DNA of 64,000 nt, taken from Pseudomonas cavernae. GTDB taxonomy: Bacteria; Pseudomonadota; Gammaproteobacteria; Pseudomonadales; Pseudomonadaceae. Both the position numbers and the translations under genes were made by a program. Shown here in pieces: positions 20,001 through 37,465 of this stretch; position 1 is the first letter of the stretch; each line of letters begins with the position of its first letter. The notes beneath the pieces were generated by a model. That model saw nothing but the letters and a program-made list of their open reading frames with translations. It did not search any database and had not been told where the DNA came from. The stretch spans positions 2,914,001-2,978,000 of the forward strand of contig NZ_CP032419.1 in assembly GCF_003595175.1 (NCBI RefSeq). Direction: 5' to 3'.

Positions 20001-20086
20001 GCCAGAAAGGCCGCATGGGCCTCGGCAATCTCGATTTGTTTGAGGATGTACTGCAGATCCGCTTTGTTGACTGTTAAGGTAGCCAT
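14090..20086 (-). CDS. RTX-type secreted haem peroxidase with alanine-rich coiled-coil insertion
   Basis: A 1998-residue protein. The start is the ATG at 20086 ([10 protein letters not shown]), set by GAGGA just upstream. Residues 1-150: N-terminal part of the bacterial animal-type peroxidase. 160-335: Ala/Asp/Glu-rich helical insertion. 345-1010: peroxidase core with the distal site [12 protein letters not shown] (Asp370, His371), HSEHNRL (631-637) and the proximal site YRFGHSM (His738). A calcium motif of the PERCAL type, [11 protein letters not shown], is at 414-424. 1065-1245: RTX nonapeptides. About 1498-1592: Ig-like domain. 1609-1930: more RTX repeats. The C-terminus ends in a type I secretion-type tail (VADFQLV). 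It has no N-terminal signal peptide. Export is presumably by the T1SS at 48.9-53.3 kb. A relative is P. putida PP_2561 (PepA). Role inferred: extracellular peroxide-dependent oxidation. Confidence 0.92.
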
Positions 20087-20194
20087 TGTCGTTTTCCTCG
20101 TTGCAAAGCGCGGTGAGAAAACCACATGCAGCCGAACCCGCTGCAACAACGTGGCTAATGCGTTGCCGCTAATCGAATGATGTTTTTTCGGATA

Positions 20195-21001: not shown

Positions 21002-23008
21002 TCAGGGTTCGATCCGGCGCTGCTGATGTATCCAGTCGACGATCTCCCCTTCCGGGGTATAGCCGTTGACCGTCTCGCGCAGCAACTGACGCACTTTAGC
21101 GTAGTCGTCCTGCTCAACGGCCTCGAGCAATGCCGCCAACACTGCCTTGAGAGCCTCCCAGGCTAGATGCTCCTCATTGGCCCGCATGATCATCGGGTGA
21201 TCAGTTGGGCTGACGTTATCGCCGATCAGCAATTCCTCATACAGCTTCTCGCCAGGACGCAAGCCGCTGAACTCGATGGCGATATCCCCGTGAGGATTCT
21301 TCTCCGAACGCACACTGAGGCCGGAAAGATGGATCATCTTTTCCGCCAGCTCGAGAATCTTCACTGGCTGGGCCATATCCAACACGAACACATCGCCGCC
21401 CTGCCCCATCGAGCCGGCTTGAATCACCAACTGAGCAGCCTCGGGAATGGTCATGAAGTAACGGGTGATATTCGGATGCGTGACCGTCACCGGCCCGCCG
21501 CGACGAATTTGTGCATAGAACCGTGGGATCACTGACCCCGAGGAGCCCAGCACATTCCCGAAACGCACCATGGTGAAACGGGTCTTGTTGACCTGATGGA
21601 CGGCATCCTTGTCTGCAAACAAAACCGGACCCGATTCCCGGCTCAATGCCTGCAAAACCATTTCAGCCAGGCGCTTGGTGCTGCCCATCACGTTGGTCGG
21701 CCGCACCGCTTTGTCGGTGGAAATCAGCACGAAATGCTTAACGCCTGCCCTCACCGCAGCCTGAGCGGTGTACAGCGACCCCATGACGTTGTTCAGCATC
21801 CCCTCGGCAATGTTGTGCTCCACCATCGGTACATGCTTGTAGGCGGCCGCATGGTAGACAGTGTCCACCTGCCAGGTCCGCATAATGTCCAGCAGCCGCT
21901 CTGGATTGCGGATCGAGCCCAGGATTGGCACCAGCCGTAGCGGCAAGGACTCACGCTCGATCCTTTGCTCAAGCTCGGTATGGATGCTGTACAGATTGAA
22001 CTCGCTGTGCTCGAACAGCAGCAGCGTTGTCGGTTCACTCGCCATGATCTGGCGGCACAACTCAGAACCGATCGAGCCTCCAGCGCCAGTCACCATAATG
22101 GTCTGACCACGAATGCAACGCTCGAACAACTCCTGTTGCGGCGGAACCGCATCACGCCCGAGCAAGTCGGTGATATCCACTTCCTGGATGTCATCGACCT
22201 TCACCCGCCCGCTGGCCAGATCCATAAAGCCCGGAACACTGCGTACATGCAGCGGGAACTGTTCAAGGTGCTCTAACACCTCGCGCCGGCGCCCGCGAGA
22301 AGCCGAGGGAATTGCCAGCAATATCTCCTGCGCCCCCGTTTCCTCGATCATCTGCTTGATATGCTTGGGCTTGAACACCCGCAGTCCGGCAATTACCCGA
22401 TCGGCAATGCCGCTGTCATCATCTATGAACGCCACCGGGCGCATCGCGCGCCCCAAGCGCAAGGCCCCCACCAACTGGTTACCAGCAGCCCCAGCACCAT
22501 AGATCGCCACTTTAGGCAAACCGTCATCACGGTTCATAAAGGGCATCGGCTGGCTGACTGAAAACCAATCGCCCATAAAATACTGGCGCATTCCCAGGCG
22601 TAACCCACCGAGCATCACCAAACTCAACCACCAGTAGTTGAACACCAGTGAGCGCGGCACAGCTACTGGTGCATCGCGGTACCAATACACCGCCAGGGCG
22701 AGGAACAATGCAGACAGGGTGACGGCCTTGGCGATAGCGAGTAGCGCATCGTTACCGAAGTAGCGCATCACCGCCCGGTACATACCGAACCTCACGAACA
22801 GCGGGATAGCGATCAGTGGCGCGGCCACAAACAGCCAGAGGTGCCCTCCCCATGGATGAATCAGGTTGTCGGTGCCCAGGCGCACGACAAACGCCAACCA
22901 CAAAGCGGCCCACACAAGCGCCACATCCGTGGTCAGCTGCAACAAGCGCTTGGAACCACGCGGCAGCCGCAACAACCCTTCGCGCAACTTATCAACAGTC
23001 CTTAACAC
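21002..23008 (-). CDS. wbpM: UDP-GlcNAc 4,6-dehydratase WbpM
   Basis: A 668-residue inner-membrane-anchored dehydratase that makes UDP-4-keto-6-deoxy-N-acetylglucosamine, the precursor of QuiNAc/FucNAc in O-antigen. N-terminal membrane helices lie in about 1-150, followed by a first Rossmann-like domain (VAIYGAGAAGNQLV, about 167-180). The C-terminal SDR domain has VTGAGGSIGSELCRQI, the Ser/Thr site LISTDKAVRPTNVMGSTKR and RPGEKLYEEL. Met replaces the usual SDR Tyr before the Lys (NVMGSTK), as known for WbpM/FlaA1-type large enzymes. It is the last gene of the cluster, after wbpL, as in P. aeruginosa. Confidence 0.94.
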   Translation of the reverse strand: MLRTVDKLREGLLRLPRGSKRLLQLTTDVALVWAALWLAFVVRLGTDNLIHPWGGHLWLFVAAPLIAIPLFVRFGMYRAVMRYFGNDALLAIAKAVTLSALFLALAVYWYRDAPVAVPRSLVFNYWWLSLVMLGGLRLGMRQYFMGDWFSVSQPMPFMNRDDGLPKVAIYGAGAAGNQLVGALRLGRAMRPVAFIDDDSGIADRVIAGLRVFKPKHIKQMIEETGAQEILLAIPSASRGRRREVLEHLEQFPLHVRSVPGFMDLASGRVKVDDIQEVDITDLLGRDAVPPQQELFERCIRGQTIMVTGAGGSIGSELCRQIMASEPTTLLLFEHSEFNLYSIHTELEQRIERESLPLRLVPILGSIRNPERLLDIMRTWQVDTVYHAAAYKHVPMVEHNIAEGMLNNVMGSLYTAQAAVRAGVKHFVLISTDKAVRPTNVMGSTKRLAEMVLQALSRESGPVLFADKDAVHQVNKTRFTMVRFGNVLGSSGSVIPRFYAQIRRGGPVTVTHPNITRYFMTIPEAAQLVIQAGSMGQGGDVFVLDMAQPVKILELAEKMIHLSGLSVRSEKNPHGDIAIEFSGLRPGEKLYEELLIGDNVSPTDHPMIMRANEEHLAWEALKAVLAALLEAVEQDDYAKVRQLLRETVNGYTPEGEIVDWIHQQRRIEP

Positions 23009-23230: not shown

Positions 23231-24244
23231 CTACTCCCGCTCCCCAGCCTTGAACCTTATCGCCAACCACACCAATGGCAGGTAAGCCAGTAGCAATCCC
23301 ACGGCACCATCCACTCCACCTAGCCCGACCCAAAGCGCAACTGGCAGCAGCCAGAAAAGGTTCAGCACCGCCACCGCCAGCGTCACCGGCAAGTGTTTGC
23401 CAAACTGGCGCGATGCGTACTGGTAAGCATGGCTGCGGTGTGCCTCGTACACCTTATCGCCCCGCAGCAGCCTGCGAAACAGTGTCCATGTGGCATCAAC
23501 GATGAACACCCCCAGTAGAATCAACCAACACCACAGCAACTGTGGCGCCACCCAGGCGGCTTGCAGCGAGAGCACACCCAGCGCAATACCGAGAAAGCCA
23601 CTGCCGGCATCCCCCATGAAGATGCGCGCTGGCGGGAAGTTCCAGAACAGGAAGCCCGCCACCGCCACTGCCAGCGACAAGGGCGCTAGTGCGGCAGCCC
23701 CCTCGCCTAGCAACAGATAGAGCAACGCGCCGCCCAAGCACACGCAGATCGCCTCGACACTGGCAATACCATCAATGCCATCCATAAAGTTATACAGATT
23801 GAGCAGCCAGACCAGGTAAAACGCCGCCAGCGCATAACCCAACCAGCCCAGTTCCAGGTCGAAGCCGAAGATCACCAGCGACGGCAACCCCCCCAACCAG
23901 CCCAGAGCCCAACCGGCTCCGATGAAATGCGCTAACAGCCGCCAGCGCGCAGCGATATGCCCATGGTCATCGAGAAATCCCACCACGGCGATCCAGCCCC
24001 CCGCCCCTAGCAAGGCCCACATCACCGGCCATGCCAACACGCCGATTGACGCCAACAGCGGCAGTGCCGCCAGAAAGCTGAGCACAATGGCCACCCCGCC
24101 CCCGCGCGGCGTGGGTATCGAATGCGAACTGCGCCCATTGGGAATATCCATCAGGCTGCGCGCCAAGGCATAACGGCGCAAGGCACCCGTCAGAAAAAGA
24201 GAAACGCCGGCCATGGCCGGCAGCAGCCACCAAATCGTCATCAA
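23231..24244 (-). CDS. wbpL: MraY-family initiating glycosyl-1-phosphate transferase WbpL
   Basis: A 337-residue polytopic membrane enzyme with about ten helices. It transfers a HexNAc-1-phosphate (FucNAc, QuiNAc or GlcNAc) from UDP to undecaprenyl phosphate to start O-antigen units. Family marks: HSIPTPRGGGVAIVLSF (about 41-57), VVGFLDDHGHI (conserved Asp pair), NLYNFMDGIDGIA (about 150-162), ARIFMGDAGSGFLG and HRSHAYQYASR near the C-terminus. It lies directly before wbpM. The preceding gap (24245-24572) separates it from the reductase gene and shows no gene or clear signal. Confidence 0.93.
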   Translation of the reverse strand: MMTIWWLLPAMAGVSLFLTGALRRYALARSLMDIPNGRSSHSIPTPRGGGVAIVLSFLAALPLLASIGVLAWPVMWALLGAGGWIAVVGFLDDHGHIAARWRLLAHFIGAGWALGWLGGLPSLVIFGFDLELGWLGYALAAFYLVWLLNLYNFMDGIDGIASVEAICVCLGGALLYLLLGEGAAALAPLSLAVAVAGFLFWNFPPARIFMGDAGSGFLGIALGVLSLQAAWVAPQLLWCWLILLGVFIVDATWTLFRRLLRGDKVYEAHRSHAYQYASRQFGKHLPVTLAVAVLNLFWLLPVALWVGLGGVDGAVGLLLAYLPLVWLAIRFKAGERE

Positions 24245-24572
24245 AGGTCAACTTCCTGAAGCAGATAAAACAACAGCGTGCGCCGAGGATGGCGCCCCTA
24301 CAACAGTAGAGCCTGCTCACCGCAACTTCTGCACGCGCATACTCTGTAGAAGCCGCGCTCTCGCCGCGATGCGGGCCATAGACCCACACTGTAAACGACA
24401 AGTTCAGCCACCCCGACCAGCACCTGCCAGCCGAGCGTATTGGCAATACGCGCCCCACTCCAAACGCATCCCGATCGACCGGAGTCTTGAACTCAACCGT
24501 TGACAATTCGCCGCCGGCGATCAGGGCTGGGGCCTCCGGGGTTGCCTGGTCATGTTCTGCGGCGCCACATCA
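24245..24572. other. 328-bp gap with no supported gene
   Basis: Between wbpL and the reductase gene. A minus-strand frame runs through it into wbpL out of phase, but it has no family likeness or ribosome site. No strong hairpin, promoter or repeat is seen. Confidence 0.5.
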
Positions 24573-25522
24573 TTACGTGTGATGCTCCAAAAAATGCGTT
24601 GCCGTCTTGCGTAGAGCCGCATCAACGCTGACTGGCGGCGCCCAACCCAATAACTCACGTGTCTTGCTGATGTCGACCTGTAGCGAGCTGCACAATCGAC
24701 GAGATAGAGCCCTCTTCCCCAGCATCGCCGCCCCCGCTTCAAGCAGCCAACTCGGCACCGGCAACAAACGGGCCGGCTTTCCCAAGGCCACGCCCATTCT
24801 GCGTAATAACTCGGTAGTTGAGAGATCCTCACCATCACTTACCAGAAAAGTCTGGTTCGCTGCAGCAGGGTGATCGATACAGGTCACGATCAGATCAACC
24901 AGATTGTCCAAGGCAACCAGGCTACGCCGGTTATGAATAGCTCCCAGGGGCAGGGGAACACCTTTACTAACAGTTTTTATCAATCGCCCAAAGTTACCTG
25001 GAGCTTTTGGTCCATACACCAACGGCGGCCGGATAATCACTATCTCCATGCTTGTCTCCGCCGCTAACTGACGTAGCCCCAACTCAGCCTCATGCTTGGA
25101 AACAGCATAAGGCTCATTTGGGCTGGGCAAGTCATCGGCAGTGAATGGACGAGAGCTTTGATTGCCATTCACACCAATTGAACTAATAAAAATAAAGCGC
25201 TCGACTCCGGCTTGCGCTGCTTGCCGCGCAAGAGCCAGGGTTCCACTAACGTTCACACGACGAAACGCTACAAGCGGGTCATCAGCGGTTTCATTCAGTA
25301 CATGAGCCCGGGCGGCTGCATGAATAACGACCTTTACACCAACAAGTGCTTCCGACCAACTGGTATTTGCAGAAAGGTCACCGACCTGAACACAATGAAC
25401 ACCGCCAGGAAGATCAACCGACTGGCGACGCAAAGCAGCAACGGGTGAGTAGCGACCATCATTTAACAAGCGATGAATCAGTGCTTGGCCAACAAATCCC
25501 CCCCCCCAGTGACGAGGATCAT
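24573..25522 (-). CDS. WbpV/WbpK-like NAD-dependent sugar reductase/epimerase, out of frame at a G10 tract
   Basis: The natural start is the ATG at 25522, with AAAGGA upstream: it reads MILVTGGG, then the frame breaks. The minus strand carries ten Gs (25507-25498); eleven would give MILVTGGGGFVGQALIHRLL and join the long frame to make a 316-residue extended SDR. With ten, translation stops after about 14 codons; an internal TTG at 25469 would lack the cofactor loop. The remainder is intact: FISSIGVNG, YAVSKHEAE (catalytic Tyr-xxx-Lys), RPPLVYGPKAPGNF. The place beside wbpL and wbpM suggests reduction of UDP-4-keto-6-deoxy-GlcNAc to FucNAc or QuiNAc. Sequencing error, real mutation or phase variation are all possible. 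Confidence 0.8.
25498..25507 (-). repeat. Poly-G (G10) tract at codons 6-9 of the WbpV/K-like gene
   Basis: Ten consecutive C on the plus strand, within the glycine-rich cofactor loop. The count decides whether the gene is in frame: 8 or 11 on, 10 off. Confidence 0.85.
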
Positions 25523-25630
25523 TTACTTTCCTTTACTGCATAAATAAAAAAATGAACGCTGCAAATAACCACTTAAAATACCTCCGAAAAATACTCTACA
25601 CCGTGCATACCCCACTACTAGCAAGCTCCC

Positions 25631-26803
25631 TCATGAGCCTTGAGTATACTTCATGAGACCTTCGTACTCCTGAACCAATAAACGACTCAAATAGATACTA
25701 TCAAAATTTTCATACACACGCTTATATGCTTTGGTAGCCATTTCCGCTCGGATTCCTACATCGGAGGCCACCTTAACCAACGCTTGAGCTAACGCTTGAT
25801 AATCTCTTACCGGAACAAGAATTCCAGTTTCACCATTCACAACGGCGTCGGAAAGGCCGTAAATATCGGTGCCTATGGTTGGAACTCCCATTGCAGCCGC
25901 CTCGATCACAACAGTTCCGAATCCCTCTCGGTAGCTGGGCAGACATAACACATCAGCAATCGACATATACTTTTCTGGCTCGCGGGAAAAACCAACCAAA
26001 CGGACGCGCTGCTGAGCATTTTCATCAATTACGGAATCAAAACATTGTCGACCATCGACTTCGAAAGGGCCGACGAAGACTAAATGGGCATCGACCCCTT
26101 GGGCGATGACCTGATTGAATGCTTGAGCTAGCTCTCTTACTCCCTTGTCGCGAGTAATCCTGCCGACAAACAATATTAAGAAACTCGTTTCCGGTATACC
26201 AAGATCTTTCTTTAGACTCGATCTATCTTCTTCGGAATAGCGCTTGGGATTGAAACGCTGCAAATCGATACCAGCCAGAGATCCCTCTCCCAGCACAAAT
26301 ATCCTAGAGTCTTTCACTATACCATTGTCTACCAAAAATTGCTTTTGGCTAAAGCTGTCTGTATAGCAGCGAGTATTAAGTCGTCCGATTACCTTGTCAC
26401 ACCACTTGAGGATATGCTTTTTCACCCCGGACATAGTCACCCAAGGCTGCCCAGTAAATGTATGCAAGCGTACGCTTACGCCCGACATCTTACCGGCGAT
26501 CGCACACAGCAAGCCAGCCTTGGGCGTAGTTGAATGTACAATATCAAATCTTCTTTCATTAAATAGTTTGACCAATGCGTACAAGGCCTTGAGATCGCTT
26601 AGCGGGCTTATACTTCTTGATATATTGACCTCAACAAAACTCATCTCGTCGAGATCATAAGCGTCGGCACTGAGATCGTCTTCGGCACTTGAAACAACCG
26701 TAAGATCAGCACCTGACTCCTTGATAGCGTCGAGCTGCGTACGCAACTGCGTAAAAATAAAAAATTTAACCGTTGAAACTCGGGCAATACGCAAGCCATT
26801 CAT
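25631..26803 (-). CDS. Glycosyltransferase family 4 protein
   Basis: A 390-residue GT-B fold enzyme, predicted cytoplasmic at the inner membrane, that adds one sugar to the lipid-linked O-unit. The N-terminal domain binds the acceptor (FDIVHSTTPKAGLLCAIAG, LHTFTGQPWVTMSG). The C-terminal domain begins with FLILFVGRITRDKGVRELAQAF and has the nucleotide-sugar signature LPSYREGFGTVVIEAAAMG with the EX7E-type glutamates, then GETGILVP. The start MNGLRIARVST follows closely on the reductase gene (four bases between stop and start). Donor sugar unknown. Confidence 0.9.
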   Translation of the reverse strand: MNGLRIARVSTVKFFIFTQLRTQLDAIKESGADLTVVSSAEDDLSADAYDLDEMSFVEVNISRSISPLSDLKALYALVKLFNERRFDIVHSTTPKAGLLCAIAGKMSGVSVRLHTFTGQPWVTMSGVKKHILKWCDKVIGRLNTRCYTDSFSQKQFLVDNGIVKDSRIFVLGEGSLAGIDLQRFNPKRYSEEDRSSLKKDLGIPETSFLILFVGRITRDKGVRELAQAFNQVIAQGVDAHLVFVGPFEVDGRQCFDSVIDENAQQRVRLVGFSREPEKYMSIADVLCLPSYREGFGTVVIEAAAMGVPTIGTDIYGLSDAVVNGETGILVPVRDYQALAQALVKVASDVGIRAEMATKAYKRVYENFDSIYLSRLLVQEYEGLMKYTQGS

Positions 26804-26807
26804 CTAC

Positions 26808-27764
26808 TTAGCCACTCTTCTTACCAGTCGCATCCATTAGATGGCGGCAATACTGGCGCAGACCGATTTCAATACCTACTCCAGGAGAAAAACCCAGACA
26901 ACCCTCTATCTTTTCAGTCGAGTAAACCGCTCTAGTCATCAAAGCATTTATACGCCCTTCCGAAAGCGGAAAACCCGGGATTAACTTCGCAAAAAAAATT
27001 ATTGCCTTGACGATAAGAATAGGCATTATCGGGGTCCACCCCCCCCCCACTTCACTTTTCACTAACTGCACGAATGAGTACTGATCAATAACGTCGGAAA
27101 CGATGAAGTCGTTGCCAGAAGCTATCGGATTCCCCATACAACTAATAATAGCGTCAACCACATCATCGACATGAACATAATTCATCATGCATAAGCTAGG
27201 CCTTCCTATGAAGAAGAACAATTTACGCCTGATCACCTGAATCAACTGAGCCAGTGACTGATTAGACATACCGTCACCAAACACATTTGACGGTCTAATG
27301 ATAGTATAAGGAATCCCCCTGGCACGACATATATCACTCACAAGAAGATCACCTTCCGCTTTAGTGATCTCATACTCCCCCACTGGATTGAAAGGATGGC
27401 TTTCCCGAATCACCCCCGCGCCCTGAGGCCCATAAACACCAACACTACTTAGCTGAATCCAATGCGTTTTATTCTCGGTCGAAAGGGAGGACAATGCATA
27501 TTGTATTGAGTCAACATGAAGTCGACGCATCAATGATTCATTTCTTATCTCACCAGCACAATTAATTACCACGTCATAATTGGATAGATCGGGGTACGTT
27601 CTATCGACCATGTCGCCAACATGGATTTTCACTGCCGGCCCCAGAAGGCTTTTTGCACGCGCCGGGTTCCTTGTCAACAAAGAGACTTCATGACCGTCGC
27701 CAATGAGCTTACTTATTAAAGCTCTACCTATAAATCCCGCCGCCCCAAAAACAAATACCTTCAC
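26808..27764 (-). CDS. NAD-dependent sugar epimerase/reductase with internal G10 tract
   Basis: A 318-residue extended SDR, taking the GTG at 27764 (AGGTG five to six bases before) rather than the TTG 16 codons upstream. The Rossmann loop VFGAAGFIGRALI is at the extreme N-terminus; IQLSSVGVYGPQG carries the active-site Ser and YEITKAEGD the Tyr-xxx-Lys pair; then RPSNVFGDG. Its fold class matches WbpV/K-type UDP-4-keto-HexNAc reductases and GalE-like epimerases. Residues about 239-242 (VGGGW) are encoded by a ten-G run (27048-27039), in frame here. It sits between wzy and the GT4 gene. Exact reaction uncertain. Confidence 0.87.
   Translation of the reverse strand: MKVFVFGAAGFIGRALISKLIGDGHEVSLLTRNPARAKSLLGPAVKIHVGDMVDRTYPDLSNYDVVINCAGEIRNESLMRRLHVDSIQYALSSLSTENKTHWIQLSSVGVYGPQGAGVIRESHPFNPVGEYEITKAEGDLLVSDICRARGIPYTIIRPSNVFGDGMSNQSLAQLIQVIRRKLFFFIGRPSLCMMNYVHVDDVVDAIISCMGNPIASGNDFIVSDVIDQYSFVQLVKSEVGGGWTPIMPILIVKAIIFFAKLIPGFPLSEGRINALMTRAVYSTEKIEGCLGFSPGVGIEIGLRQYCRHLMDATGKKSG
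27039..27048 (-). repeat. Poly-G (G10) tract inside the second sugar epimerase gene
   Basis: Ten consecutive C on the plus strand, encoding part of SEVGGGWTP. Ten keeps the frame; nine or eleven would cut off the last quarter of the protein. Confidence 0.85.
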
Positions 27765-27835: not shown

Positions 27836-28891
27836 TTAACTTAATAAATCACTCAAAAATAAACCCCCACCCTGAGCTAGCATGGCATATACGATAACAG
27901 CGAGACAAAACACGAAAAAGCTCAGAACCCGAGGAATACACTCAAAAAAATGGGCTTGCGAAAATATTACCCCGATCAATACTGAAAAAAACAACCAGGC
28001 ATTTAATAGCAAACGATCTGAAAAGGCGCCAAAACCAAAGATGAAAAATGGGATAAGGAATAACCAGTAAATCTTGAGACAACCTTGAAATAGGGTCCGC
28101 TGTGTCACTGAAAGAAATAAACGCGACAACAAATCAAGAAACAGCCCAAGCACGCAGGAAAAAGCAGCAAAGTCTAATCTAATGCCGGCCCTATACCCTT
28201 CCATGGCACCATACTCAACTACCTTGCTGTATATATCAAAGTTGGATAGCGTTGAAAAAGCCCTAACTAATGACTCTGAAACACCAAGGGAGTAAGCGAA
28301 CGCAAGAATCAAGACAAATATAAGCACACACGAGTATGAAAAAATCAAACCTACCGCCACACCCACAAATAAAATTGAAGACGAATGAAAGCCCAACGCG
28401 ATAACAGCGCTAAAAAAGAAAAGAAAGCCATAGCGGCCACTCAAAAAACACGAATAAAAATAAATCAACGCCAAGCAAGACACCCCCTGCCTAATGACAT
28501 TAACCTGCGCAGAGAAAAAAACTGGAGAACACAGCAAAAATAATAACCCATAAATGAACAGTCCAGCATCAACATCCGATTGCTGAAAGTACGCATTAAA
28601 CTTAAATAATGAACTATAGAAAAAAAACAATGAAAGACTAGATACAAACGAAAAAAACAAGCCATGACTTAACCCAACAGCAGAAAAAAATTCTGCTGTT
28701 GCGTTATATATAACATCCAACTTATACAATGACTCCTCACCATCTAATAACTCTTGGTAAAGCTGCGAATACAGCCTCGTATCCGCCCCCACTTCAACCG
28801 GACGAAACCCTGTCGCTAAAGCGACTACAAGCAAAAGCCCCCCTATCAGAAGCACATAGACGGCATCGTCTCTGCGGGAATAAATACTCAC
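27836..28891 (-). CDS. wzy: EpsG-family O-antigen polymerase (Wzy)
   Basis: A 351-residue very hydrophobic protein with roughly ten membrane helices, AT-rich like the next genes. The early loop with GADTRLYSQLY resembles the D-x-x-x-Y region of EpsG/Wzy proteins, and Arg-containing periplasmic loops (NVIRQGVSC) fit polymerase function. Wzy proteins are too variable for certain naming, but it is the only polymerase-like gene in a cluster that has wzx and wzz, so Wzy is the natural call. It starts one base into the stop of the GT2 gene, pointing to coupled translation. Confidence 0.8.
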   Translation of the reverse strand: MSIYSRRDDAVYVLLIGGLLLVVALATGFRPVEVGADTRLYSQLYQELLDGEESLYKLDVIYNATAEFFSAVGLSHGLFFSFVSSLSLFFFYSSLFKFNAYFQQSDVDAGLFIYGLLFLLCSPVFFSAQVNVIRQGVSCLALIYFYSCFLSGRYGFLFFFSAVIALGFHSSSILFVGVAVGLIFSYSCVLIFVLILAFAYSLGVSESLVRAFSTLSNFDIYSKVVEYGAMEGYRAGIRLDFAAFSCVLGLFLDLLSRLFLSVTQRTLFQGCLKIYWLFLIPFFIFGFGAFSDRLLLNAWLFFSVLIGVIFSQAHFFECIPRVLSFFVFCLAVIVYAMLAQGGGLFLSDLLS

Positions 28892-29817
28892 TAACGGATC
28901 CTTTGCTCGGGCGCTACCGACTTTCTCATCTTGAATACATCAAACAAGAGCCATGGTCTAAAATTATAAATATTCCTGATAAGGAAAAATATGGCTTCAG
29001 TAGAGAAACCACATTTTGCTCGAAGCATAGCCAGCGAAGTAAAAAGGCAATTAGCATACAACTGCTTCCGAACACCTGGACAACTTCGATAATAATGAAA
29101 GACATCCCTAAAGTAGATGCTGTACACTTTTACACGACCTATTTTAGTAGATAAATAAGTACTCCCACTTGGGTTGCACCTATATTTCACCAGAACTTCG
29201 TCAATATAAATTGCTCGCCCATTCTGCGACAGGGAGTCCAATGCAAAAAACCACTCCGTGAAATCGCTAGAAATAGTTCTGGTTCTTCTGGAGTTGCGTC
29301 GATAAGCATAAGCACTATGCACAGTGATTGGCCCCCACAGCGCCAAATCCGACATACCAAAATGCATAAGTCCTCCCTCTTGCAGGGAAGGGGATCCCGT
29401 CTCTATTTCATAACTGCCGTCATCTGAAAAGTAGCGCGCCCTGTGAAAAACCAAATTGACGTCTGAATTTCCACGAAAAAGGTCAAACTGTTTTTGCAAC
29501 TTCCCCGGCAACATGACATCGTCACCATCTATGTGAAAAACCACATCTCCAGTTGCACTATTGTGAGCCCGAGTGTAGTTTATTGATACCCCAACATTCT
29601 TTTCACGAAGTATCAGCTTGAATTTTTCAGGCTGCTTATCTGCATACTCTTTAATGATGGACTGGGTCCTATCCACAGAACAATCATCTGAAACCAGGAT
29701 ATCGAAGCTAAAATCTGTTTTTTGCGAAAGAATACTTTCCAAACAGTCCCGTATATATTGTTCTTGATTGTAGCAAGAGACAACGACCGTAGCCGTTGAC
29801 ATATTATCTTTTGACAT
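28891..29817 (-). CDS. Glycosyltransferase family 2 protein
   Basis: A 308-residue GT-A enzyme. VVVSCYNQEQYIRDCLESIL opens the nucleotide-binding domain, ILVSDDCSVDRT has the first Asp pair, and VVFHIDGDDVMLPGKL carries the DxD-type metal site. A variable C-terminal region follows. ATGs at 29817 and 29802 both fit; the first overlaps the end of wzx by 14 bases. The donor is an unknown nucleotide sugar. It acts in the cytoplasm on the undecaprenyl-linked O-unit before flipping. Confidence 0.88.
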   Translation of the reverse strand: MSKDNMSTATVVVSCYNQEQYIRDCLESILSQKTDFSFDILVSDDCSVDRTQSIIKEYADKQPEKFKLILREKNVGVSINYTRAHNSATGDVVFHIDGDDVMLPGKLQKQFDLFRGNSDVNLVFHRARYFSDDGSYEIETGSPSLQEGGLMHFGMSDLALWGPITVHSAYAYRRNSRRTRTISSDFTEWFFALDSLSQNGRAIYIDEVLVKYRCNPSGSTYLSTKIGRVKVYSIYFRDVFHYYRSCPGVRKQLYANCLFTSLAMLRAKCGFSTEAIFFLIRNIYNFRPWLLFDVFKMRKSVAPEQRIR

Positions 29818-31051
29818 AAATTACAATTCCTGCACACGCGAGAATAAAATAGATAAAATTTGTAATTACATAGGAAACAAGCACGCCCTCAAGCCCAAAT
29901 CCTTGCTGAACAGAGAGCCACGTGGTTAATAGGAATGCGCCACCCTGAAAGAGTTCAGCCGCCAGATAAAGCTTTAACGCCGCCTTTGCAACACCAACAA
30001 AGCCGATCACATACGCCGATATTTTGAAAAAGTCACCCAGCAACTGATATTTAATCAAATCGCCCAGAGGCTCAAATTCGTGCGACAAAAGAAGACCTAT
30101 GAAAAATTCTCTTCTGATATAAAAAACTGTTGCTCCGGCCAAGAAAATGACTGAAACAAAAATCAAAAACTTTAGTACCATTCGACCTATTTCATTCTTA
30201 TTATTCTCAGCCGATATCAGGGGGACAAAATAATAGGCAAGAAAAATCGTAAAAAAACCCAAATAAGCACTAGACAACCTAATCGAAGCCTGCCAGAGCC
30301 CTGCGGCTTGATAACCATAGCTTCGAATGATCATCTCACGTACTAGCATTTCTACTAAAGGGAATGAGATGGCCCCCGCACAGACCATCAAGCTATAACT
30401 GAAGAGTTTGAGAAACCCTTTATCTTTGAAACCAGTAAAAAATATCCGCCCCCAAAATTTTGACTTTACGAACAAATAAAATGCTGGAAATACATATAAT
30501 AAATAAGAAAATACTATTGCTAAAATAGCACCCAAAAGTTTGTACTCGGCAATCAAGTACCAAGAAAAAGGAAAAGCAATAGAGTTACCTAGTATCTGTA
30601 TTTTTGCGAAGGTTTTAGTATCTCTCAGACCATTAGCAACTCCTATCACCATATTTGAGAAAGCAAATCCAAGTTGAGCGCAAGCTAGAAAAATTATTGC
30701 CGGGAAATACTCACTTGAGCCGAATACATAACTTGATATCCGCGCTGAAAACGTAGCTACAAGTAGAAAAATTAGCACAGAAACAATAAATGAATAAGTT
30801 GCCGCAGTTGAAACAAATGATAACAGAGCTCTGGGACGGTTATTATATTCGGCGACGTACTTTACTACTCCATTGATAACACCACCACCGGCGAGCAGGT
30901 ACAAAAGCGCCACGGCATTCATGAAGTTGCCGAGCTTTCCAAGGCCTTCGACCCCGAGATACATTGCAACCAGCTTGATCAAAATGAAACCAGTCACAAT
31001 TTTTGAAAGGTGCGCAACCGATGTTAGCGCTATGCTATAGATTGCCCTCAT
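29804..31051 (-). CDS. wzx: O-antigen flippase Wzx
   Basis: A 415-residue membrane protein of the MATE/PST superfamily with about 12 hydrophobic helices. It begins with a typical flippase N-terminus (AHLSKIVTGFILIKLVAMYLGVEGLGKLGNF), followed by the second-repeat region LVREMIIRSYGYQAAGLWQASIRLSSAYLGFF. Its overall pattern is like the WzxE type that works with aminodeoxysugar units, which fits the adjacent rffA. Length is normal. It moves the lipid-linked repeat unit from the cytoplasmic to the periplasmic face for Wzy. Confidence 0.88.
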   Translation of the reverse strand: MRAIYSIALTSVAHLSKIVTGFILIKLVAMYLGVEGLGKLGNFMNAVALLYLLAGGGVINGVVKYVAEYNNRPRALLSFVSTAATYSFIVSVLIFLLVATFSARISSYVFGSSEYFPAIIFLACAQLGFAFSNMVIGVANGLRDTKTFAKIQILGNSIAFPFSWYLIAEYKLLGAILAIVFSYLLYVFPAFYLFVKSKFWGRIFFTGFKDKGFLKLFSYSLMVCAGAISFPLVEMLVREMIIRSYGYQAAGLWQASIRLSSAYLGFFTIFLAYYFVPLISAENNKNEIGRMVLKFLIFVSVIFLAGATVFYIRREFFIGLLLSHEFEPLGDLIKYQLLGDFFKISAYVIGFVGVAKAALKLYLAAELFQGGAFLLTTWLSVQQGFGLEGVLVSYVITNFIYFILACAGIVIYVKR

Positions 31052-31078: not shown

Positions 31079-32206
31079 TTAAAGATAAACCGATCGAGTT
31101 ACTGAGCTGACAATCTTATCAATATCAGCCATTTCCATCCCGAACCACAGTGGAAGTCGAACAAGGCGCTCACTTTCTTTAGTGGTAAAGTTGTCAGTGC
31201 CTGAAAACACTCCAAGTTTCTTGCCTGCGCTTGACGAGTGCAATGGTACATAATGGAACACTGCCATTACCGACTCTTTGCTCATCGCCTCAAGGAACCT
31301 GGTTCTACTCTCAAGGCCTGACAGTTTCAGGTAAAACATATGCGAATTATGCTGACAATCAGAAGGAATGTGAGGAGTTTCTATCTTATCAGTGAGGGTG
31401 GAAAAAGCGCTTTTATACGCGCTCCAGGTTTTCAGGCGATTGATATTTATCTCTTCCGCGCGCTCAAGCTGGCCATAGAGATAGGCTGCTTGCAATTCTG
31501 AGGCTAAATAGCTACTACCAATATCTACCCAAGTATATTTATCGATCATGCCTCTGAAGAACTGACTACGGTTCGTGCCTTTCTCTCTAATAATTTCGGC
31601 TCTTACGACGAAGCGCTCGTCACTTATCAGTAACAGGCCACCTTCGCCACCGCTGGTGTAGTTCTTGGTTTCATGGAAGCTATAAGCCCCCATATGACCG
31701 ATGCTGCCGAGCGGGCGACCCTTGTAAGTAGCCAACATTCCTTGCGCCGCATCCTCGATGACAAACAACTGGTGCCGGTCTGCGATGGCCATGATGGTAT
31801 CCATTTCGCAGGCAACTCCGGCATAATGGACGGGCACGATCGCCTTAGTCTTAGGGGTAATAGCGGCTTCAATTAGATTTTCATCAATATTCATTGTATC
31901 AGGGCGAATATCGACAAAAACTATCTTTGCACCGCGCAGAGCAAAAGCATTGGCGGTGCTGACAAAGGTGTAACTCGGCATAATGACTTCATCGCCGGGC
32001 TGAATATCTAGCAGTATTGCAGCCATCTCCAACGCTTGAGTGCATGATGGTGTCAGTAGCGCTTTTTTACAGCCGGTTTGCTTTTCAAACCATTCCTGGC
32101 AAAGGTGTGTGTACTGACCATCACCAGACATTTTACTGCTTCGCATGGCCGCCATTACATATTTATCTTCGTTACCGGTGTATGGTGGTTTGTTGAATGC
32201 GATCAT
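31079..32206 (-). CDS. rffA: dTDP-4-amino-4,6-dideoxygalactose transaminase (RffA/WecE)
   Basis: A 375-residue sugar aminotransferase of the DegT/DnrJ/EryC1 family. It uses PLP and glutamate to convert dTDP-4-keto-6-deoxyglucose (the product of RmlB) to dTDP-4-amino-4,6-dideoxygalactose (Fuc4N). Seen: [16 protein letters not shown] at the start, as in Wec[41 protein letters not shown]; and [18 protein letters not shown] with the PLP Lys. Its ATG shares four bases with the end of the WbqC gene (ATGA overlap), so the two are translationally coupled. Confidence 0.92.
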
Positions 32207-32892
32207 CTTGTAATATATCTCATGTATCGAGGTGACGCTGTTCCACAGTTGAACAGCAAATCTAATATGCTCACGCCTTGACTGAAATCACCCCATAGCT
32301 GGGGATATTCAGTGTATCCGGCATAGTCAAACCAAGTCAGCTTTATGTTGCGCTCGCTAAAATATTTACCGTCGATATAGTCTTTAGCAGCCGGGCCAGA
32401 AATATATTCACTACCACCGGCCTGAGTACATAAATCGGCCAATCTTTCGGTCTTACCATCTATTAAGTTATAGTCCCATGAGTTACTTATTTTTGTCGTA
32501 ATTCCGAGATAATAGCAAATACCCTCAATAAAACTACGATTGAGTGCAGATAGATTCTCATGAGAAGCCTGAAGATAAAGCGGCTCCAACCACGTCGCAA
32601 TCTCTTGGAAAAATGGAGCACGACGATAATTAGCCTCTAATGTACGCCAATGCTTTTGTTGCCAACGACAATCAGGAATCGTAACTTCACGAATTCGTCT
32701 TTCAATGTTTTGACCTACCGGAATACTGATCCACTCAAGACCCTTTGGAGTTTTAATTTTATTCCGATTTCGCCAATCATTTTTGGTAAACTGCATATCA
32801 TCATAAATGATGAATTCGTCCACCGCTGCGATCATGTCAAAATAACCCTTCCATGGGATATAGTTAGACTGGAGAATTGCTATTTTCTTCAT
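32203..32892 (-). CDS. WbqC-family protein
   Basis: A 229-residue protein of the WbqC family, found in many polysaccharide clusters that make aminodeoxysugars. The family N-terminus is clear ([19 protein letters not shown]), followed by [18 protein letters not shown] and [15 protein letters not shown]. No membrane segment or signal peptide. It overlaps rffA by four bases at one end and the acyltransferase by four at the other, suggesting a single unit for making or acylating the 4-amino sugar. The biochemical reaction of the family is not settled to my knowledge; N-acylation of the amino sugar is a guess from context. Confidence 0.88.
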
Positions 32893-33548
32893 TTTATCTT
32901 TATTCCTTCTTCAAAATGAAACGCCACTTCTTTTGCCGGAATACCGATATTTTTCGAGAACGCTTTGGTGCTCGAAAGGACTAAAGAGCATGCGCCAACA
33001 AGACATTCATCAGAAATAAATAAACACTGGGCAATTGTTGAATTAAATCCCAAAAAACAATTATTACCCAAGCGCGAAAACCCACCTACAGTTGACTTTG
33101 CCGCAATGAACGAATGACTTCCAATAATTACGTCGTGACAAATATTTGAAGACGACCAGACAATATTATTGTCTCCAACTTGCACAAACGGCTCAATCTG
33201 CACCGCCTGCAAGATTGCGTTATTATCACCAATAACAGTTGTCGGATCGATCACTGCACTTTTACTAATATAATTTGGCATTCTATATTTTTTATTTTTA
33301 GCCTTCTGGTACATCGAAACCCTATTCCGCATATTTGAGTAACCAATAGCAACAAACATACTATACTGCTTAGGCGGAAAAGCGATCTCAACATCTTCAA
33401 AAGGAACAACTGGCAATCCATCTATCATAGGCTCTAGAATATAATCGCGATCCAGACAGTAAGCGACCACTTTACAATCAGCATCGCTCTCAAAATAGTG
33501 CCTCATGAGCTTTGCAAAACTTCCGCCACCATAAATTATTAACTCCAT
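32889..33548 (-). CDS. NeuD/PglD-like sugar acyltransferase (left-handed beta-helix)
   Basis: A 219-residue protein. The N-terminal PglD-type domain opens with [16 protein letters not shown] and includes [15 protein letters not shown]. The C-terminal hexapeptide-repeat part (about 95-205) has repeated [IV]G-D/x-N turns ([38 protein letters not shown]) that build a left-handed helix, with His in NICHDV as the likely catalytic base. Such enzymes acetylate the 4-amino group of UDP- or dTDP-amino sugars, fitting the Fuc4N made by RffA. It lies between the WbqC gene and rmlA. Confidence 0.87.
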
Positions 33549-33581: not shown

Positions 33582-34451
33582 TTACTTTAGATTAACCAAC
33601 GATAATAAATATTTACCATAACAGTTCTTGCTCAGCGAGTGACCAATACGCTGCAGGTCTTCCTTGTTCAACCAACCATTATTGAATGCAATTTCTTCCA
33701 AGCAAGCCACCTTGTAGCCTTGGCGCTTCTCAATGGTTTCCACGAAATGGGCGGCTTCCAACAGGCTTTCGTGGGTGCCGGTGTCCAACCAGGCGAAGCC
33801 ACGGCCAAGCAGTTCGACGTTCAGGTCGCCACGTTCCAGGTAGACCTGGTTAATGCTGGTAATTTCTAACTCGCCACGAGCGGATGGTTTCACCTCTTTG
33901 GCAATTTGCACCACATCGTTGCCGTAGAAGTACAGGCCGGTGACGGCGTAATGGGATTTGGGTTTGAGCGGTTTTTCCTCGATGGAGATGGCGCGCTTGT
34001 CAGCGTCGAATTCCACCACGCCGAAGCGCTCCGGGTCCTTGACCTGGTAGCCGAACACGGTGGCGCCCTTCTCGCGGGCAGCTGCCGCACGCAGCATGGG
34101 GCTGAAGCCTTGGCCATAGAAAATATTGTCGCCCAGCACGAGGCACACGCTGTCCTGGCCGATGAACTCTTCACCAATGATAAAGGCTTGCGCTAGCCCG
34201 TCCGGACTGGGCTGCACGGCATAGCTAAGCTTAATGCCGAACTCACTGCCATCGCCCAGCAGGCGCTGGAAGCCGCCGATGTCTTCCGGGGTGCTGATCA
34301 GCAGGATGTCGCGAATCCCGGCGAGCATCAGTACCGACAGCGGGTAATAGACCATCGGCTTGTCGTAGATCGGCAACAGCTGCTTGGACACACCCTTGGT
34401 GATGGGGTATAGACGAGTGCCGGAGCCACCGGCGAGGATGATGCCTTTCAT
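33582..34451 (-). CDS. rmlA: Glucose-1-phosphate thymidylyltransferase RmlA
   Basis: A 289-residue enzyme that makes dTDP-glucose from glucose-1-phosphate and dTTP. The nucleotidyltransferase signature [20 protein letters not shown] (8-27) and [16 protein letters not shown] are exact for Rml[10 protein letters not shown] holds the metal Asp. It is followed 13 bases after rmlB on the same strand. GC content and codon use here return to the host average, unlike the AT-rich genes downstream. No rmlC or rmlD is present, so its product goes to the amino-sugar branch rather than to rhamnose within this locus. Confidence 0.96.
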
Positions 34452-34464
34452 GTGCTGCGGATCC

Positions 34465-35523
34465 TTATTCAGTAGTGCCTAGGCGTTCGCGCTGATAGCT
34501 GCCGTCCTGTACTCGGCGGCACCATTCCAGATTGTTCAGGTACCACTCGACGGTCTTACGGATACCGGATTCGAAGGTTTCCTCGGGCACCCAACCTAGT
34601 TCGTGATGGATTTTGCTGGCGTCGATGGCGTAGCGTAGGTCGTGGCCGGGGCGGTCCTGGACGTGTGTGATAAGTGAGGCGTGCGGCGCAAAAGCGGAGT
34701 CAGGGCGCAATTCATCGAGCAGGTCGCAGAGGGTATGTACCACTTCGATGTTCTGCTTCTCGTTGTGTCCGCCAATGTTGTAGGCCTCGCCGATCTGGCC
34801 TTCGGTCAGCACCTTGTATAAGGCGCGTGCGTGGTCCTCAACGTACAACCAGTCTCGTACCTGGTTGCCCTTGCCATACACCGGCAGTGGCTTGCCTTCC
34901 AGGGCGTTGAGGATCATCAGCGGAATAAGCTTTTCGGGGAAATGATAGGGGCCGTAGTTGTTCGAGCAGTTGGTGACCAGCGTGGGCAGCCCGTAGGTAC
35001 GACGCCAAGCGCGCACTAGATGGTCAGAGCTGGCCTTACTGGCTGAGTACGGCGAGCTGGGCGCGTAAGGCGTGGTTTCGGTGAACAGTTCTTCAGGGTT
35101 TTCCAGATCGCCATACACCTCGTCGGTGGAGATATGGTGAAAACGGAAGGCGGCCTTGCCGCGGTCGTCCAGGCTTTGCCAGTACTGGCGGACGACTTCC
35201 AGCAAGGTATAGGTGCCAACAATATTGGTCTCGATGAACGCCGCCGGGCCGTCGATGGAGCGGTCCACGTGGCTTTCCGCAGCCAGGTGCATCACCGCAT
35301 CCGGCCGGTACTCGCAGAACACCCGTTCGACTTCGGCACGATCGCAGATATCCACCTGCTCGAAGGCATAGCGCTCGCTGCCGTTGACTGCAGCTAGTGA
35401 TTCGAGGTTGCCGGCATAGGTCAGCTTGTCGAGATTGACCACGCTATCGCTGGTGTTGCAAATGATGTGACGAATGACGGCGGATCCAATAAAACCAGCT
35501 CCACCTGTAACTAAAATTTTCAT
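34465..35523 (-). CDS. rmlB: dTDP-glucose 4,6-dehydratase RmlB
   Basis: A 352-residue extended SDR that converts dTDP-glucose to dTDP-4-keto-6-deoxyglucose. Seen: [19 protein letters not shown] at the start, [27 protein letters not shown], the active-site STDEVYGDL (Asp-Glu pair for dehydration) and [15 protein letters not shown] (Tyr-xxx-Lys), then [15 protein letters not shown]. First sugar-synthesis gene after wzz and the decayed MBL gene. Length and motifs are fully normal. Confidence 0.96.
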
Positions 35524-35578: not shown

Positions 35579-36318
35579 CTAGCTTGGGATAACAGCATCT
35601 ACGAACCTTTTTCTGCCCTTGCACTTGCTGGACAGCATTTCGGCTAACCGTTGCTTGGCCTGAGGCTCGCCATCCACAATCCGCACGCCTGACGTCCATG
35701 CGCGCATTCGCGTAACAAAATTCACTAGGCCTTTCTGGTCCGCATGGAACGAATAGCCACCTATGGTATGGACTTGAGCCCGGATGTCATAGCGTTGTTC
35801 GTCCAGTACCACGTAACCGCCGATCGGGCCGTAGGCTTGGAACCCAGCCTGGCGTAAGAGCACATTGTGTCGCAGGTCGTGCCGCATGGCTTTCAGATAA
35901 TTGACGATTCGGCCGCTGCTGCACATTCCGTTCCCTCCAACGACGATGACCGAACGAGCGATTTTCATCTGATGGCGAACCATCTTCACATACGCTTGAT
36001 GGCTGTCGCCGGTTAACAACTGCTCGAAGCCCAGCGGGCTGCGGCCTTGTTTGACCCGCTTTAACGCCTTTTTATCCCAAAGGGTATAGGCCCGGCGTGG
36101 TCAATGCGGGCATGGGTGGCGATCAATGCCTTGACCGTATCCAGGGGAGATTCGATAGCCAGGCGATCGACGCCGGATCTGCCGTTAGCGGAGGTTTCCG
36201 TGCTCTGGAACAGACCGTAATCGATCAACAGGCTGTGCTGGGCATCAATCAGGAGTTGGCGGCAGGAGCCAATCACGCCACCCTTGGCGCTATGGTGCAG
36301 GATGCCAGAGTATGACAT
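35579..36318 (-). pseudogene. Decayed MBL-fold beta-CASP metallo-hydrolase gene
   Basis: Two pieces of one family in different frames. The N-terminal piece (36318-36061) starts MSYSGILHHSAKGGVIGSC and reaches ATHARIDHAGPIPFG, where the metal motif HxHxDH has Arg for its second His; it then hits a stop. The C-terminal piece is open from about 36060, reading KALKRVKQGRSPLGFEQLLTGDSH, to 35579 and carries VVGGNGMCSSGRIVNYL and IGGYSFHADQKGL, typical of the Ysh1/RNase J-like beta-CASP group. The middle of the metallo-lactamase domain, roughly 200 residues in full-length relatives, is missing. It was once an RNA-processing-type hydrolase next to the O-antigen genes; now non-functional. Confidence 0.82.
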
Positions 36319-36412: not shown

Positions 36413-37465
36413 TTAGGCTGCGGCTGAACGTTTTTTGAGCATCAGACGAATCAGAGCGATGAAGAGACCAAGCATGCCGCCAAGAACAGCACCGAGCGCC
36501 AGAATCAATGCCTTCTTGGGCTTGATGGGGTCATCAGGAATTTCGGTCTCACCATCCTGACGGAAGACAGCAACCTTTGCGGGATCTGCCTGCATGTTGG
36601 TGTATCGGTCGTACGCCTCCTCGAGATTACGCAGCTCGGGGATGAAGGGATCATCCGAAGTACGCCCTTCCAGCTCCTTCAGCTCTGCGCGCAGCGCCTT
36701 AGCACCGCGCATATAGGTCAGACCACCCGCCATGAATGCAGAAATTTGTTCTGCGTCTTGCCCACCGATGACAGGCGGATTCTCTAGCCCTATCGCCTCA
36801 GCCACTTTCAGCGACTCTTTGAGCTGGGTGATTCGGTCTTCTCGACGAGTCTTGGCAGCAACCCGCAAGGATTTGATGTGCTGCTGGAGGCCAGAGCCAA
36901 TCACTTCGATCTCGCGACGGGCGTTCTCCAAAACCTCATCGCGCGATTGCTTGCTCACCTCGTCTATATAGCGTTTAGCCCATTCGACAGCCAGAGCGGG
37001 GTCGTGGCTTTGCACCACCAGTGAATAACGTTCTGGCTGAACCTTATCCGGAGCCTTGATGCTGAAAGCCTTACCAAAGCGTTCGTAAAGTCGATCCTGC
37101 GATCCTTGGCGATCCTCTTCACTTAGCGAGGGCAAATAGACCGTCTTGAAGAAGCGACGGGTGGCTTCTTCTGCCTGCAGGTTACGGGTGAATACTGCAT
37201 AGACTCTATCCACTGTGAATAGCTCGAGCCCGCTCTCTCTGCGCCCCAGGTTAAGCCCTGCAATATTGCTCAACGATGGCGGCAACAAATAGGTTCGCGA
37301 CTCGTACACAGGCTTGCTAAGAAAGGCATATCCGGCAGCGCATGCGGTTGCCAGAACGGTCACCAGCACAATCAGCCACCTTTGCCTCCAGAGGTCTTGC
37401 AGAAGCTCGACCAGATCAATTTCATCATTCCTGTGCGCGTCGCGAGGGTAAGCATTATCAGTCAC
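36413..37465 (-). CDS. wzz: O-antigen chain-length determinant Wzz
   Basis: A 350-residue inner-membrane protein that sets O-antigen modal length in concert with Wzy. N-terminal helix at about 32-52 (RWLIVLVTVLATACAAGYAFL) after IDLVELLQDLWRQ; large periplasmic helical domain with a coiled region (about 170-290); C-terminal helix in the Pro-rich region DDPIKPKKALILALGAVLGGMLGLFIALI (about 315-343). Length and layout are normal. It is the first gene of the cluster in transcription order. Downstream is the decayed MBL gene and then rmlB. Confidence 0.93.
   Translation of the reverse strand: MTDNAYPRDAHRNDEIDLVELLQDLWRQRWLIVLVTVLATACAAGYAFLSKPVYESRTYLLPPSLSNIAGLNLGRRESGLELFTVDRVYAVFTRNLQAEEATRRFFKTVYLPSLSEEDRQGSQDRLYERFGKAFSIKAPDKVQPERYSLVVQSHDPALAVEWAKRYIDEVSKQSRDEVLENARREIEVIGSGLQQHIKSLRVAAKTRREDRITQLKESLKVAEAIGLENPPVIGGQDAEQISAFMAGGLTYMRGAKALRAELKELEGRTSDDPFIPELRNLEEAYDRYTNMQADPAKVAVFRQDGETEIPDDPIKPKKALILALGAVLGGMLGLFIALIRLMLKKRSAAA

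What the first reader, a model, noticed from the sequence alone, without database searches (positions are those of the whole stretch)
25498..25507. G10 tract puts the WbpV/K-like sugar reductase gene out of frame: possible O-antigen phase switch
Seen: a natural start with a ribosome site at 25522 reads MILVTGGG and then shifts frame at a run of ten Gs; eleven (or eight) Gs would join it to a complete 316-residue extended SDR. The rest of the gene is undamaged, which argues against an old pseudogene. Known: long G-runs in surface-sugar genes switch by slippage in other bacteria. Inferred: loss of this reductase beside wbpL and wbpM would remove the sugar that starts the O-unit, so cells could alternate between smooth and rough. 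A homopolymer sequencing error is the main alternative.
Basis: partly seen in the sequence, partly recalled or inferred. Interest (0 to 1): 0.78.

Follow-up and report, generated by a model that had tools for sequence, protein, structure and literature searches.

The report
G-run frameshift in O-antigen sugar gene
In this Pseudomonas genome a run of ten Gs puts a surface-sugar gene out of frame; it may be a reversible slippage switch, but it could also be a chance mutation or a sequencing miscount, and a survey of relatives gives no sign that such runs were selected.

Summary
On the minus strand an ATG at 25522 reads 14 codons into and past a G10 run (25507-25498) and stops; the rest of an extended SDR gene stays open to 24573, in the wzz-to-wbpM O-antigen cluster of a 4.95 Mb Pseudomonas chromosome. 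These are two of four G>=10 runs in the genome. A G10 is a plausible slippage site, and homopolymer indels in O-antigen genes are documented in P. aeruginosa (wzy) and V. cholerae. Against an evolved switch: of 115 related SDR genes read, none has a run of nine or more Gs at this site (one has an in-frame G8), and G-runs in relatives' O-antigen loci are as frequent as synonymous codon shuffling predicts. No second strain or read set was available, so a homopolymer miscount is not excluded. Best reading: a slippage-prone gene caught out of frame, a candidate contingency locus of a known kind. I rate a real frameshift at about two in three. Alternation between smooth and rough is inference.

The parts
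25498..25507 (-). tract 1: run of ten G in the glycine codons of the dinucleotide-binding motif of SDR1; out of frame as assembled
25478..25522 (-). reading frame from the natural ATG: 14 codons and a stop
   Evidence: read directly
24573..25469 (-). SDR1 remainder, open frame of 298 aa (Pfam Epimerase, E 8.9e-26); WbpK/WbpV-like by position
27039..27048 (-). tract 2: second run of ten G, in frame, inside SDR2 at an EVGGGWTP motif that several SDR2 relatives keep
26808..27764 (-). SDR2, second NAD-dependent epimerase/reductase-like gene, intact
24245..24572 (-). unusual 328-base spacer between SDR1 and the wbpL-like gene; in at least three quarters of 104 loci the two genes abut or overlap within a few bases (ends extrapolated)
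23231..24241 (-). wbpL-like undecaprenyl-phosphate sugar phosphotransferase (Glycos_transf_4)
21002..23008 (-). wbpM-like nucleotide-sugar 4,6-dehydratase (Polysacc_synt_2)
25631..26803 (-). glycosyltransferase, group 1, intact, directly upstream of SDR1
27836..28891 (-). EpsG-family protein, likely O-antigen polymerase (wzy-like)
28891..29817 (-). glycosyltransferase family 2
29804..31051 (-). flippase; WzxE model matched at 243 bits, below its 325 cut-off
31079..32206 (-). WecE-like dTDP-4-amino-4,6-dideoxyhexose transaminase
32889..33548 (-). NeuD/PglB/VioB-like sugar acetyltransferase (154.5 bits, just under the 160.8 cut-off)
33582..35523 (-). rmlA-like nucleotidyltransferase (33582-34451, Pfam NTP_transferase) and rmlB-like dehydratase (34465-35523; name recalled, no family search made)
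36413..37465 (-). wzz-like O-antigen chain length protein (102 bits, below the model's cut-off), upstream end of the cluster

Best explanation
The G10 run is a real slippage-prone site that arose at the glycine codons of SDR1, and the sequenced clone carries it in an out-of-frame length. Translation then ends after 14 residues, the nucleotide-binding half-motif is never joined to the rest of the enzyme, and the 4-keto sugar made by the WbpM-like dehydratase is not reduced. WbpL would then lack its usual first sugar and the cell would make little or no O-antigen until another slip changes the length. The neighbouring SDR2 gene carries an equally long run in frame and is a second slip point in the same cluster. 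Shown: tracts, frames, neighbours, no close paralogue seen. Inferred: enzyme role, O-antigen loss, slippage, reversibility. It is a contingency-type locus in mechanism. Whether selection shaped it is not shown, and the genus survey speaks for chance.
For: Frame break exactly at the run, none further on in the gene. The 12 other cluster genes tested read open with only a terminal stop. SDR2's equally long run is in frame, so G10 calls in this assembly are not uniformly wrong. Genome rated 100% complete, one contig. 13 of the 14 closest other homologues read are full-length, 318-321 aa, with the motif (the exception, P0009, is given with a later start). A four-glycine version of the motif occurs in frame in another genome (L150). 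Only four G>=10 runs in 4.95 Mb, two of them here. Precedents: indels in homopolymers of P. aeruginosa wzy give phage resistance (PMC10714927, passages); poly-A slips in V. cholerae wbeL/manA (PMC3441752, passages).
Against: No second strain, read set or population sample was available (P0001 stands for two member sequences but only the own contig). No relative shares a run of this length at the site: 0 of 29; of 115 one has an in-frame G8. G-runs fit codon-shuffle expectation in SDR-centred loci (G>=8: 13 seen, 11.9 expected; shorter runs are below it: G>=7 28 vs 34.8, C>=7 4 vs 14.7) and in the two genes (wbpL 9 vs 8.8, SDR 3 vs 1.2). 139 of 149 genus members have a G>=10 somewhere. Homopolymers of ten Gs are hard to count (recalled).
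Confidence: 0.45

Rival explanations
1. Sequencing or assembly miscount: the strain's SDR1 tract has an in-frame length and the gene is normal.
For: Single assembly, no reads. In 115 relatives surveyed the motif is read in frame with the rest of SDR (one, L229, has an internal TGA), and the enzyme seems needed to start the O-unit (inference). Long G-runs are hard to count (recalled). The ORF is otherwise undamaged, as expected if it is functional.
Against: The other G10 in the same assembly is in frame, so a systematic undercount of G10 runs would break SDR2 instead. Two 8-base A/T runs in SDR2 and the wzy-like gene lie in unbroken frames. Genome completeness 100%.
Confidence: 0.33
2. Recent fixed loss of function, for example during laboratory culture or after phage attack, at a mutational hotspot; not a switch in any useful sense.
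For: Of 104 WbpL genes surveyed, 2 show frame breaks (L021, L134), at G-rich stretches that are not homopolymers, so O-antigen initiation genes are lost now and then or mis-sequenced. O-antigen loss gives phage resistance in P. aeruginosa. Codon-shuffle results show no selection for tracts.
Against: A change at a G10 run is in principle revertible; no second lesion is seen in the gene.
Confidence: 0.12
3. The gene is not off: RNA polymerase slips on the G10 run and a fraction of the mRNA is in frame, giving low, steady expression.
For: Poly-A11 slippage rescues a frame-broken tssM in Citrobacter rodentium (PMC4256274, abstract). [quoted passage not shown] the paper itself is not held).
Against: Slippage of RNA polymerase is best documented on A/T runs (recalled). 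The run is not conserved.
Confidence: 0.1

Closest known systems
Vibrio cholerae O1 wbeL and manA poly-A phase-variable O-antigen genes (PMC3441752, passages)
   Same: Mononucleotide run inside an O-antigen sugar gene; a one-base length change gives an early stop; two genes of one pathway carry runs.
   Different: Poly-A8/A9; the wbeL tract is conserved in all 37 O1 strains looked at there; phage selection and, for manA, reversion are shown. Here poly-G10, one genome, nothing shown experimentally.
Homopolymer indels in P. aeruginosa PAO1 wzy selected by phages (PMC10714927, passages)
   Same: Same genus, O-antigen gene, slippage-type indels, O-antigen defect.
   Different: Different gene (polymerase); treated as loss mutations, not as a switch.
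Poly-G tract in P. putida DOT-T1E flhB (Segura et al. 2004, seen only as a citation in PMC2831843)
   Same: 5' poly-G run in a Pseudomonas gene with frame change.
   Different: Flagellar export gene; its title calls it transcriptional phase variation.
Campylobacter and Neisseria poly-G contingency genes (recalled; PMC8355987 and PMC10327513 seen in search listings only)
   Same: Long G-runs in surface-sugar genes changing frame.
   Different: Those genomes hold many such genes (recalled); here four G>=10 runs in the whole genome.
WbpK/WbpV 4-keto-hexose reductases of P. aeruginosa O-antigen clusters
   Same: Extended SDR directly upstream of wbpL and wbpM (WbpK so placed in PMC6804347, passages).
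   Different: No direct sequence comparison with WbpK or WbpV was made here; frame broken as assembled; a 328-base spacer separates it from wbpL.

Membership tests
Simple-sequence contingency (phase-variable) locus | mononucleotide run of slippage-prone length inside the coding sequence | tested here: met
   G10
Simple-sequence contingency (phase-variable) locus | a length change moves the gene between an open and a truncated frame | tested here: met
   14-codon ORF against an open 298-codon remainder
Simple-sequence contingency (phase-variable) locus | tract length varies within a clone or between isolates of the species | not testable with these tools
   no second strain found; best other homologue 87% identical
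Simple-sequence contingency (phase-variable) locus | switching is reversible and frequent | not testable with these tools
   needs culture and deep sequencing
Simple-sequence contingency (phase-variable) locus | tracts in such genes exceed what composition gives (supporting, not defining) | tested here: inconclusive
   genus-wide G>=8 counts equal codon-shuffle expectation (13 vs 11.9), but the G10 in this SDR is far above the SDR expectation (0.022 runs per 115 genes); chosen after the fact
WbpK/WbpV-type UDP-4-keto sugar reductase | extended SDR / Epimerase domain | tested here: met
   PF01370 E 8.9e-26
WbpK/WbpV-type UDP-4-keto sugar reductase | next to wbpL- and wbpM-like genes | tested here: met
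WbpK/WbpV-type UDP-4-keto sugar reductase | start codon in frame with the whole catalytic domain | tested here: not met
   frame broken at the tract as assembled
WbpK/WbpV-type UDP-4-keto sugar reductase | 4-reductase activity on the WbpM product | not testable with these tools
   inferred from position only; names that sources give for homologues are e.g. 'SDR family oxidoreductase' or 'UDP-glucose 4-epimerase family protein'

The most novel reading that the evidence does not exclude
A two-tract O-antigen contingency cluster: independent slips at two G10 runs 1.5 kb apart, in two sugar-modifying SDR genes of one cluster, let a Pseudomonas population hold up to four surface states (no O-antigen, altered forms, full form). 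Two of the genome's four longest G-runs would then serve one pathway.
Probability: 0.12. Interest if true: 0.6.

Novelty: new member of a known kind. Interest (0 to 1): 0.34.

Why it matters
If length mixtures were found, it would be a tract-based O-antigen switch in a Pseudomonas, a genus for which my searches turned up one cited poly-G case (P. putida flhB). O-antigen affects sensitivity to phages and tailocins (PMC8319346, passage) and swarming (PMC6804347), so a built-in mixed population would matter for ecology. As it stands the case also shows that codon bias alone can make G-runs common in O-antigen genes, a caution for in-silico lists of phase-variable genes.

Tried and rejected
Selection for G-runs in O-antigen loci: first seemed strong (25 overlapping G8 hits in 0.744 Mb of loci against 6.6 per Mb in 37 genomes, five-fold). 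Four of the 41 genomes searched had been left out as outliers (those of L045, L065, L096, L113; no tract in their loci). With them in, the genome rate is about 29 per Mb (computed by hand), because two assemblies hold more than a thousand hits each, and the contrast disappears. One search was given 42 of the 80 loci; one (L099) was not held. Synonymous codon shuffling of 615 ORFs in 42 loci then gave 11.9 +- 3.3 G>=8 against 13 seen and 1.2 G>=10 against 2, so the excess is codon usage. Rejected as evidence for a switch.

A shared ancestral tract: rejected; 0 of 29 relatives and only L150 (in-frame G8) among the 115 relatives.

Recurrent poly-G frame breaks in wbpL: L021 and L134 are broken, but at G-rich stretches without a homopolymer; not counted as the same thing.

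Checking homopolymer accuracy through the own genome's G8 runs (21 of 22 examined): 6 of 21 lie in stop-free frames of 450 codons or more; the rest could not be judged; inconclusive.

Identity of the 328-base spacer: no Pfam match in the overlapping ORF, single copy in the genome; left open. Promoter and terminator scan of 24200-25640: no promoter-like site, one terminator-like site, no more than in shuffles; uninformative.

Alternative starts in the continuing frame: the first is TTG 25469, past the binding motif; rejected as a source of working enzyme.

Sampling: alignment A1 used the window plus 18 of the 29 relatives. In one search, 207 of 398 genomes matched (own included). One search read 116 loci: the own one, 27, 28 new ones and 60 further regions. 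57 of those 60 follow the ranking; three (G161, G126, G271) were taken out of order because or 42 had flagged a G10 or a stop, so the G10 in L228 (G161) was partly pre-selected. Without it wbpL has 8 runs of G>=8 and one G10. WbpL was found in 104 of the 116; the other 12 were dropped from the WbpL counts.

Full report
Observation. The minus strand around 25500 reads AAGGAAAG-TAA-ATG, four more codons, then ten Gs at 25507-25498. In the ATG frame this gives 14 residues and a stop at 25478. The frame that encodes the rest of the protein is open to 24573 and is listed as a 298-aa ORF from a TTG at 25469. No ATG, GTG or TTG in that frame precedes the glycine motif. So the finding is correct at its coordinates and the frame break coincides with the run. 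Intact copies of the gene exist in relatives, including one with four consecutive glycines in frame (L150).

Context. The gene lies in an O-antigen cluster on the minus strand: wzz-like (36413-37465), rmlB/rmlA-like, NeuD-like acetyltransferase, WecE-like transaminase, WzxE-like flippase, a family-2 glycosyltransferase, an EpsG-family (wzy-like) protein, SDR2, a group-1 glycosyltransferase, SDR1, wbpL-like and wbpM-like genes (a 229-aa ORF at 32203-32892 had no NCBIfam match). The transaminase and acetyltransferase suggest a 4-acetamido-4,6-dideoxyhexose in the O-unit (inference). SDR1 sits where WbpK sits in P. aeruginosa. PMC6804347 (passages) says WbpK is assumed to convert UDP-4-keto-D-QuiNAc to UDP-D-FucNAc, places it upstream of wbpL, and reports that loss of wbpL disrupts O-polysaccharide synthesis and reduces swarming. 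SDR1's role as the reductase for the first sugar is inferred from this. The own genome has five further matches to SDR1; the three listed are 25-36% identical and partial, so no obvious backup was seen.

A second tract. A whole-genome search found runs of ten or more Gs at four places in 4.95 Mb: a G14 in an intergenic stretch next to a formaldehyde-dehydrogenase-like gene, a G10 inside an insert-like stretch of an hrpA-like helicase gene (gene names recalled; ORFs), the tract of this finding, and a G10 at 27048-27039. The last lies in SDR2, in frame, in a motif (EVGGGWTP) kept by three of the four closest SDR2 relatives read (P0122, P0123, P0125; P0124 differs by one residue). SDR1 and SDR2 are 24% identical. 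Uniform placement would put two of four runs this close with a chance of about 0.004, but O-antigen genes use GGG codons freely, so the true surprise is smaller. Codon shuffling gives a G>=10 in SDR2 in 1.1% of trials and somewhere in 13 cluster frames in 9.5%. G>=10 runs are also common in the genus: 139 of 149 genomes have at least one somewhere.

Is there selection for tracts? I tested this across the genus. In 80 named loci centred on the SDR gene there are 25 runs of G>=8 in 1.47 Mb, two of them ten or longer. In 37 genomes, overlapping G8 hits run at 6.6 per Mb but at 33.6 per Mb in the SDR-centred loci (four outlier genomes left out, and the contrast vanishes if they are kept). Synonymous codon shuffling of 615 ORFs in 42 loci reproduces the number in loci: 11.9 +- 3.3 expected, 13 seen; G>=10: 1.2 expected, 2 seen; shorter runs are below expectation (G>=7 28 vs 34.8, C>=7 4 vs 14.7). 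In 116 loci read gene by gene, G>=8 runs occur in 3 of 115 related SDR genes and 9 times among 104 wbpL genes (two of them G10, in L124 and L228; L228 was partly pre-selected), each in a gene aligned in a single frame; shuffling gives 1.2 and 8.8. So such runs in this pathway look like a by-product of codon usage. The G10 in the window's SDR1 is still an outlier for that gene: 0.022 runs of G>=10 expected per 115 genes, and it needs a glycine pair in the motif that only 1 of 115 relatives has.

Frame breaks elsewhere. In all 115 relatives read, the glycine motif is in frame with the rest of SDR; one (L229, genome G271) has an internal TGA. Two of 104 wbpL genes are frame-broken (L021, L134), at G-rich but not homopolymeric stretches. 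These may be real losses or sequencing errors.

Real or artefact? The data here cannot decide. For a real frame break: SDR2's G10 is in frame, two 8-base A/T runs in SDR2 and the wzy-like gene lie in unbroken frames, the 12 other cluster genes tested are intact, and the genome is rated 100% complete. For an error: only one assembly, no reads, and the gene is otherwise conserved. I put a real out-of-frame tract at about two in three.

Mechanism. If real, replication slippage at G10 is the ordinary mechanism, with loss of the first O-unit sugar as the likely result. In the survey SDR and wbpL abut or overlap within a few bases in at least three quarters of 104 pairs (median -3, gene ends extrapolated from the queries, own pair counted), which suggests translational coupling; in the window a spacer of 328 bases separates them, the longest of the 104. 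A frame break in SDR1 may therefore leave wbpL translation intact here (inference). Transcriptional slippage is a live rival, with precedents on A11 (PMC4256274, abstract) and on a poly(G) tract in P. putida flhB (seen only as a citation in PMC2831843). [quoted passage not shown] PMC12280811 (passages and abstract start) reports bistable wbpL expression in P. syringae as phenotypic heterogeneity, a kind of variation it calls usually not associated with genetic change: another way to on/off O-antigen.

Known parallels. V. cholerae O1 wbeL (A8) and manA (A9) are the closest system (PMC3441752, passages). In P. aeruginosa, wzy loss mainly by single-base indels in homopolymers gives cross-resistance to a phage cocktail (PMC10714927, passages). 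In evolved P. aeruginosa lines, intergenic indels, mostly in homopolymers, were enriched upstream of envelope genes (PMC8115180, passages). My searches (titles and abstract starts of the listed papers) showed no paper on a poly-G O-antigen switch in Pseudomonas; the library is open-access only and the listings were capped.

Verdict. A correctly seen frame break at a G10 run, extended here by a second G10 in the same cluster, with a plausible but undemonstrated switching role. The genus survey lowers the case for an evolved switch. New member of a known kind, if real.

Noticed in passing
window 24245-24572: A 328-base spacer of unknown origin between SDR1 and the wbpL-like gene, single copy in the genome; in most surveyed pairs these genes abut or overlap.
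   Followed up: partly
window 14090-20149 and 37704-48182: Two very large heme-peroxidase proteins with RTX calcium-binding repeats (2019 and 3492 aa) flank the O-antigen cluster on both sides; an ABC transporter gene (48882-50627) lies beyond the larger one.
   Followed up: partly
window 35579-36019: A 146-aa ORF with beta-CASP/RMMBL metallo-hydrolase (RNase-like) matches between rmlB and wzz; looks truncated.
   Followed up: partly
protein P0009 (81% identical to SDR1, 5,379,113-base contig): The only one of the 14 closest other homologues read that is given with a start past the glycine motif (307 aa); another frame break or just a start choice. Its DNA was not seen.
   Followed up: no
L124 and L228 (wbpL genes): In-frame G10 runs in the wbpL-like gene of two other Pseudomonas genomes at the PRGGGVA motif; equally long slippage candidates at the O-antigen initiation step.
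   Followed up: partly
L021 and L134 (wbpL genes): wbpL-like genes with a frame break at G-rich stretches that are not homopolymers.
   Followed up: partly
L046, 7838 bases upstream of the SDR match: In-frame G10 in what looks like a wzx flippase gene of Pseudomonas sp. Ga0074129.
   Followed up: no
own genome C1:2839358-2839371: A G14 run in an intergenic stretch next to a formaldehyde-dehydrogenase-like gene, the longest G-run of the genome.
   Followed up: no
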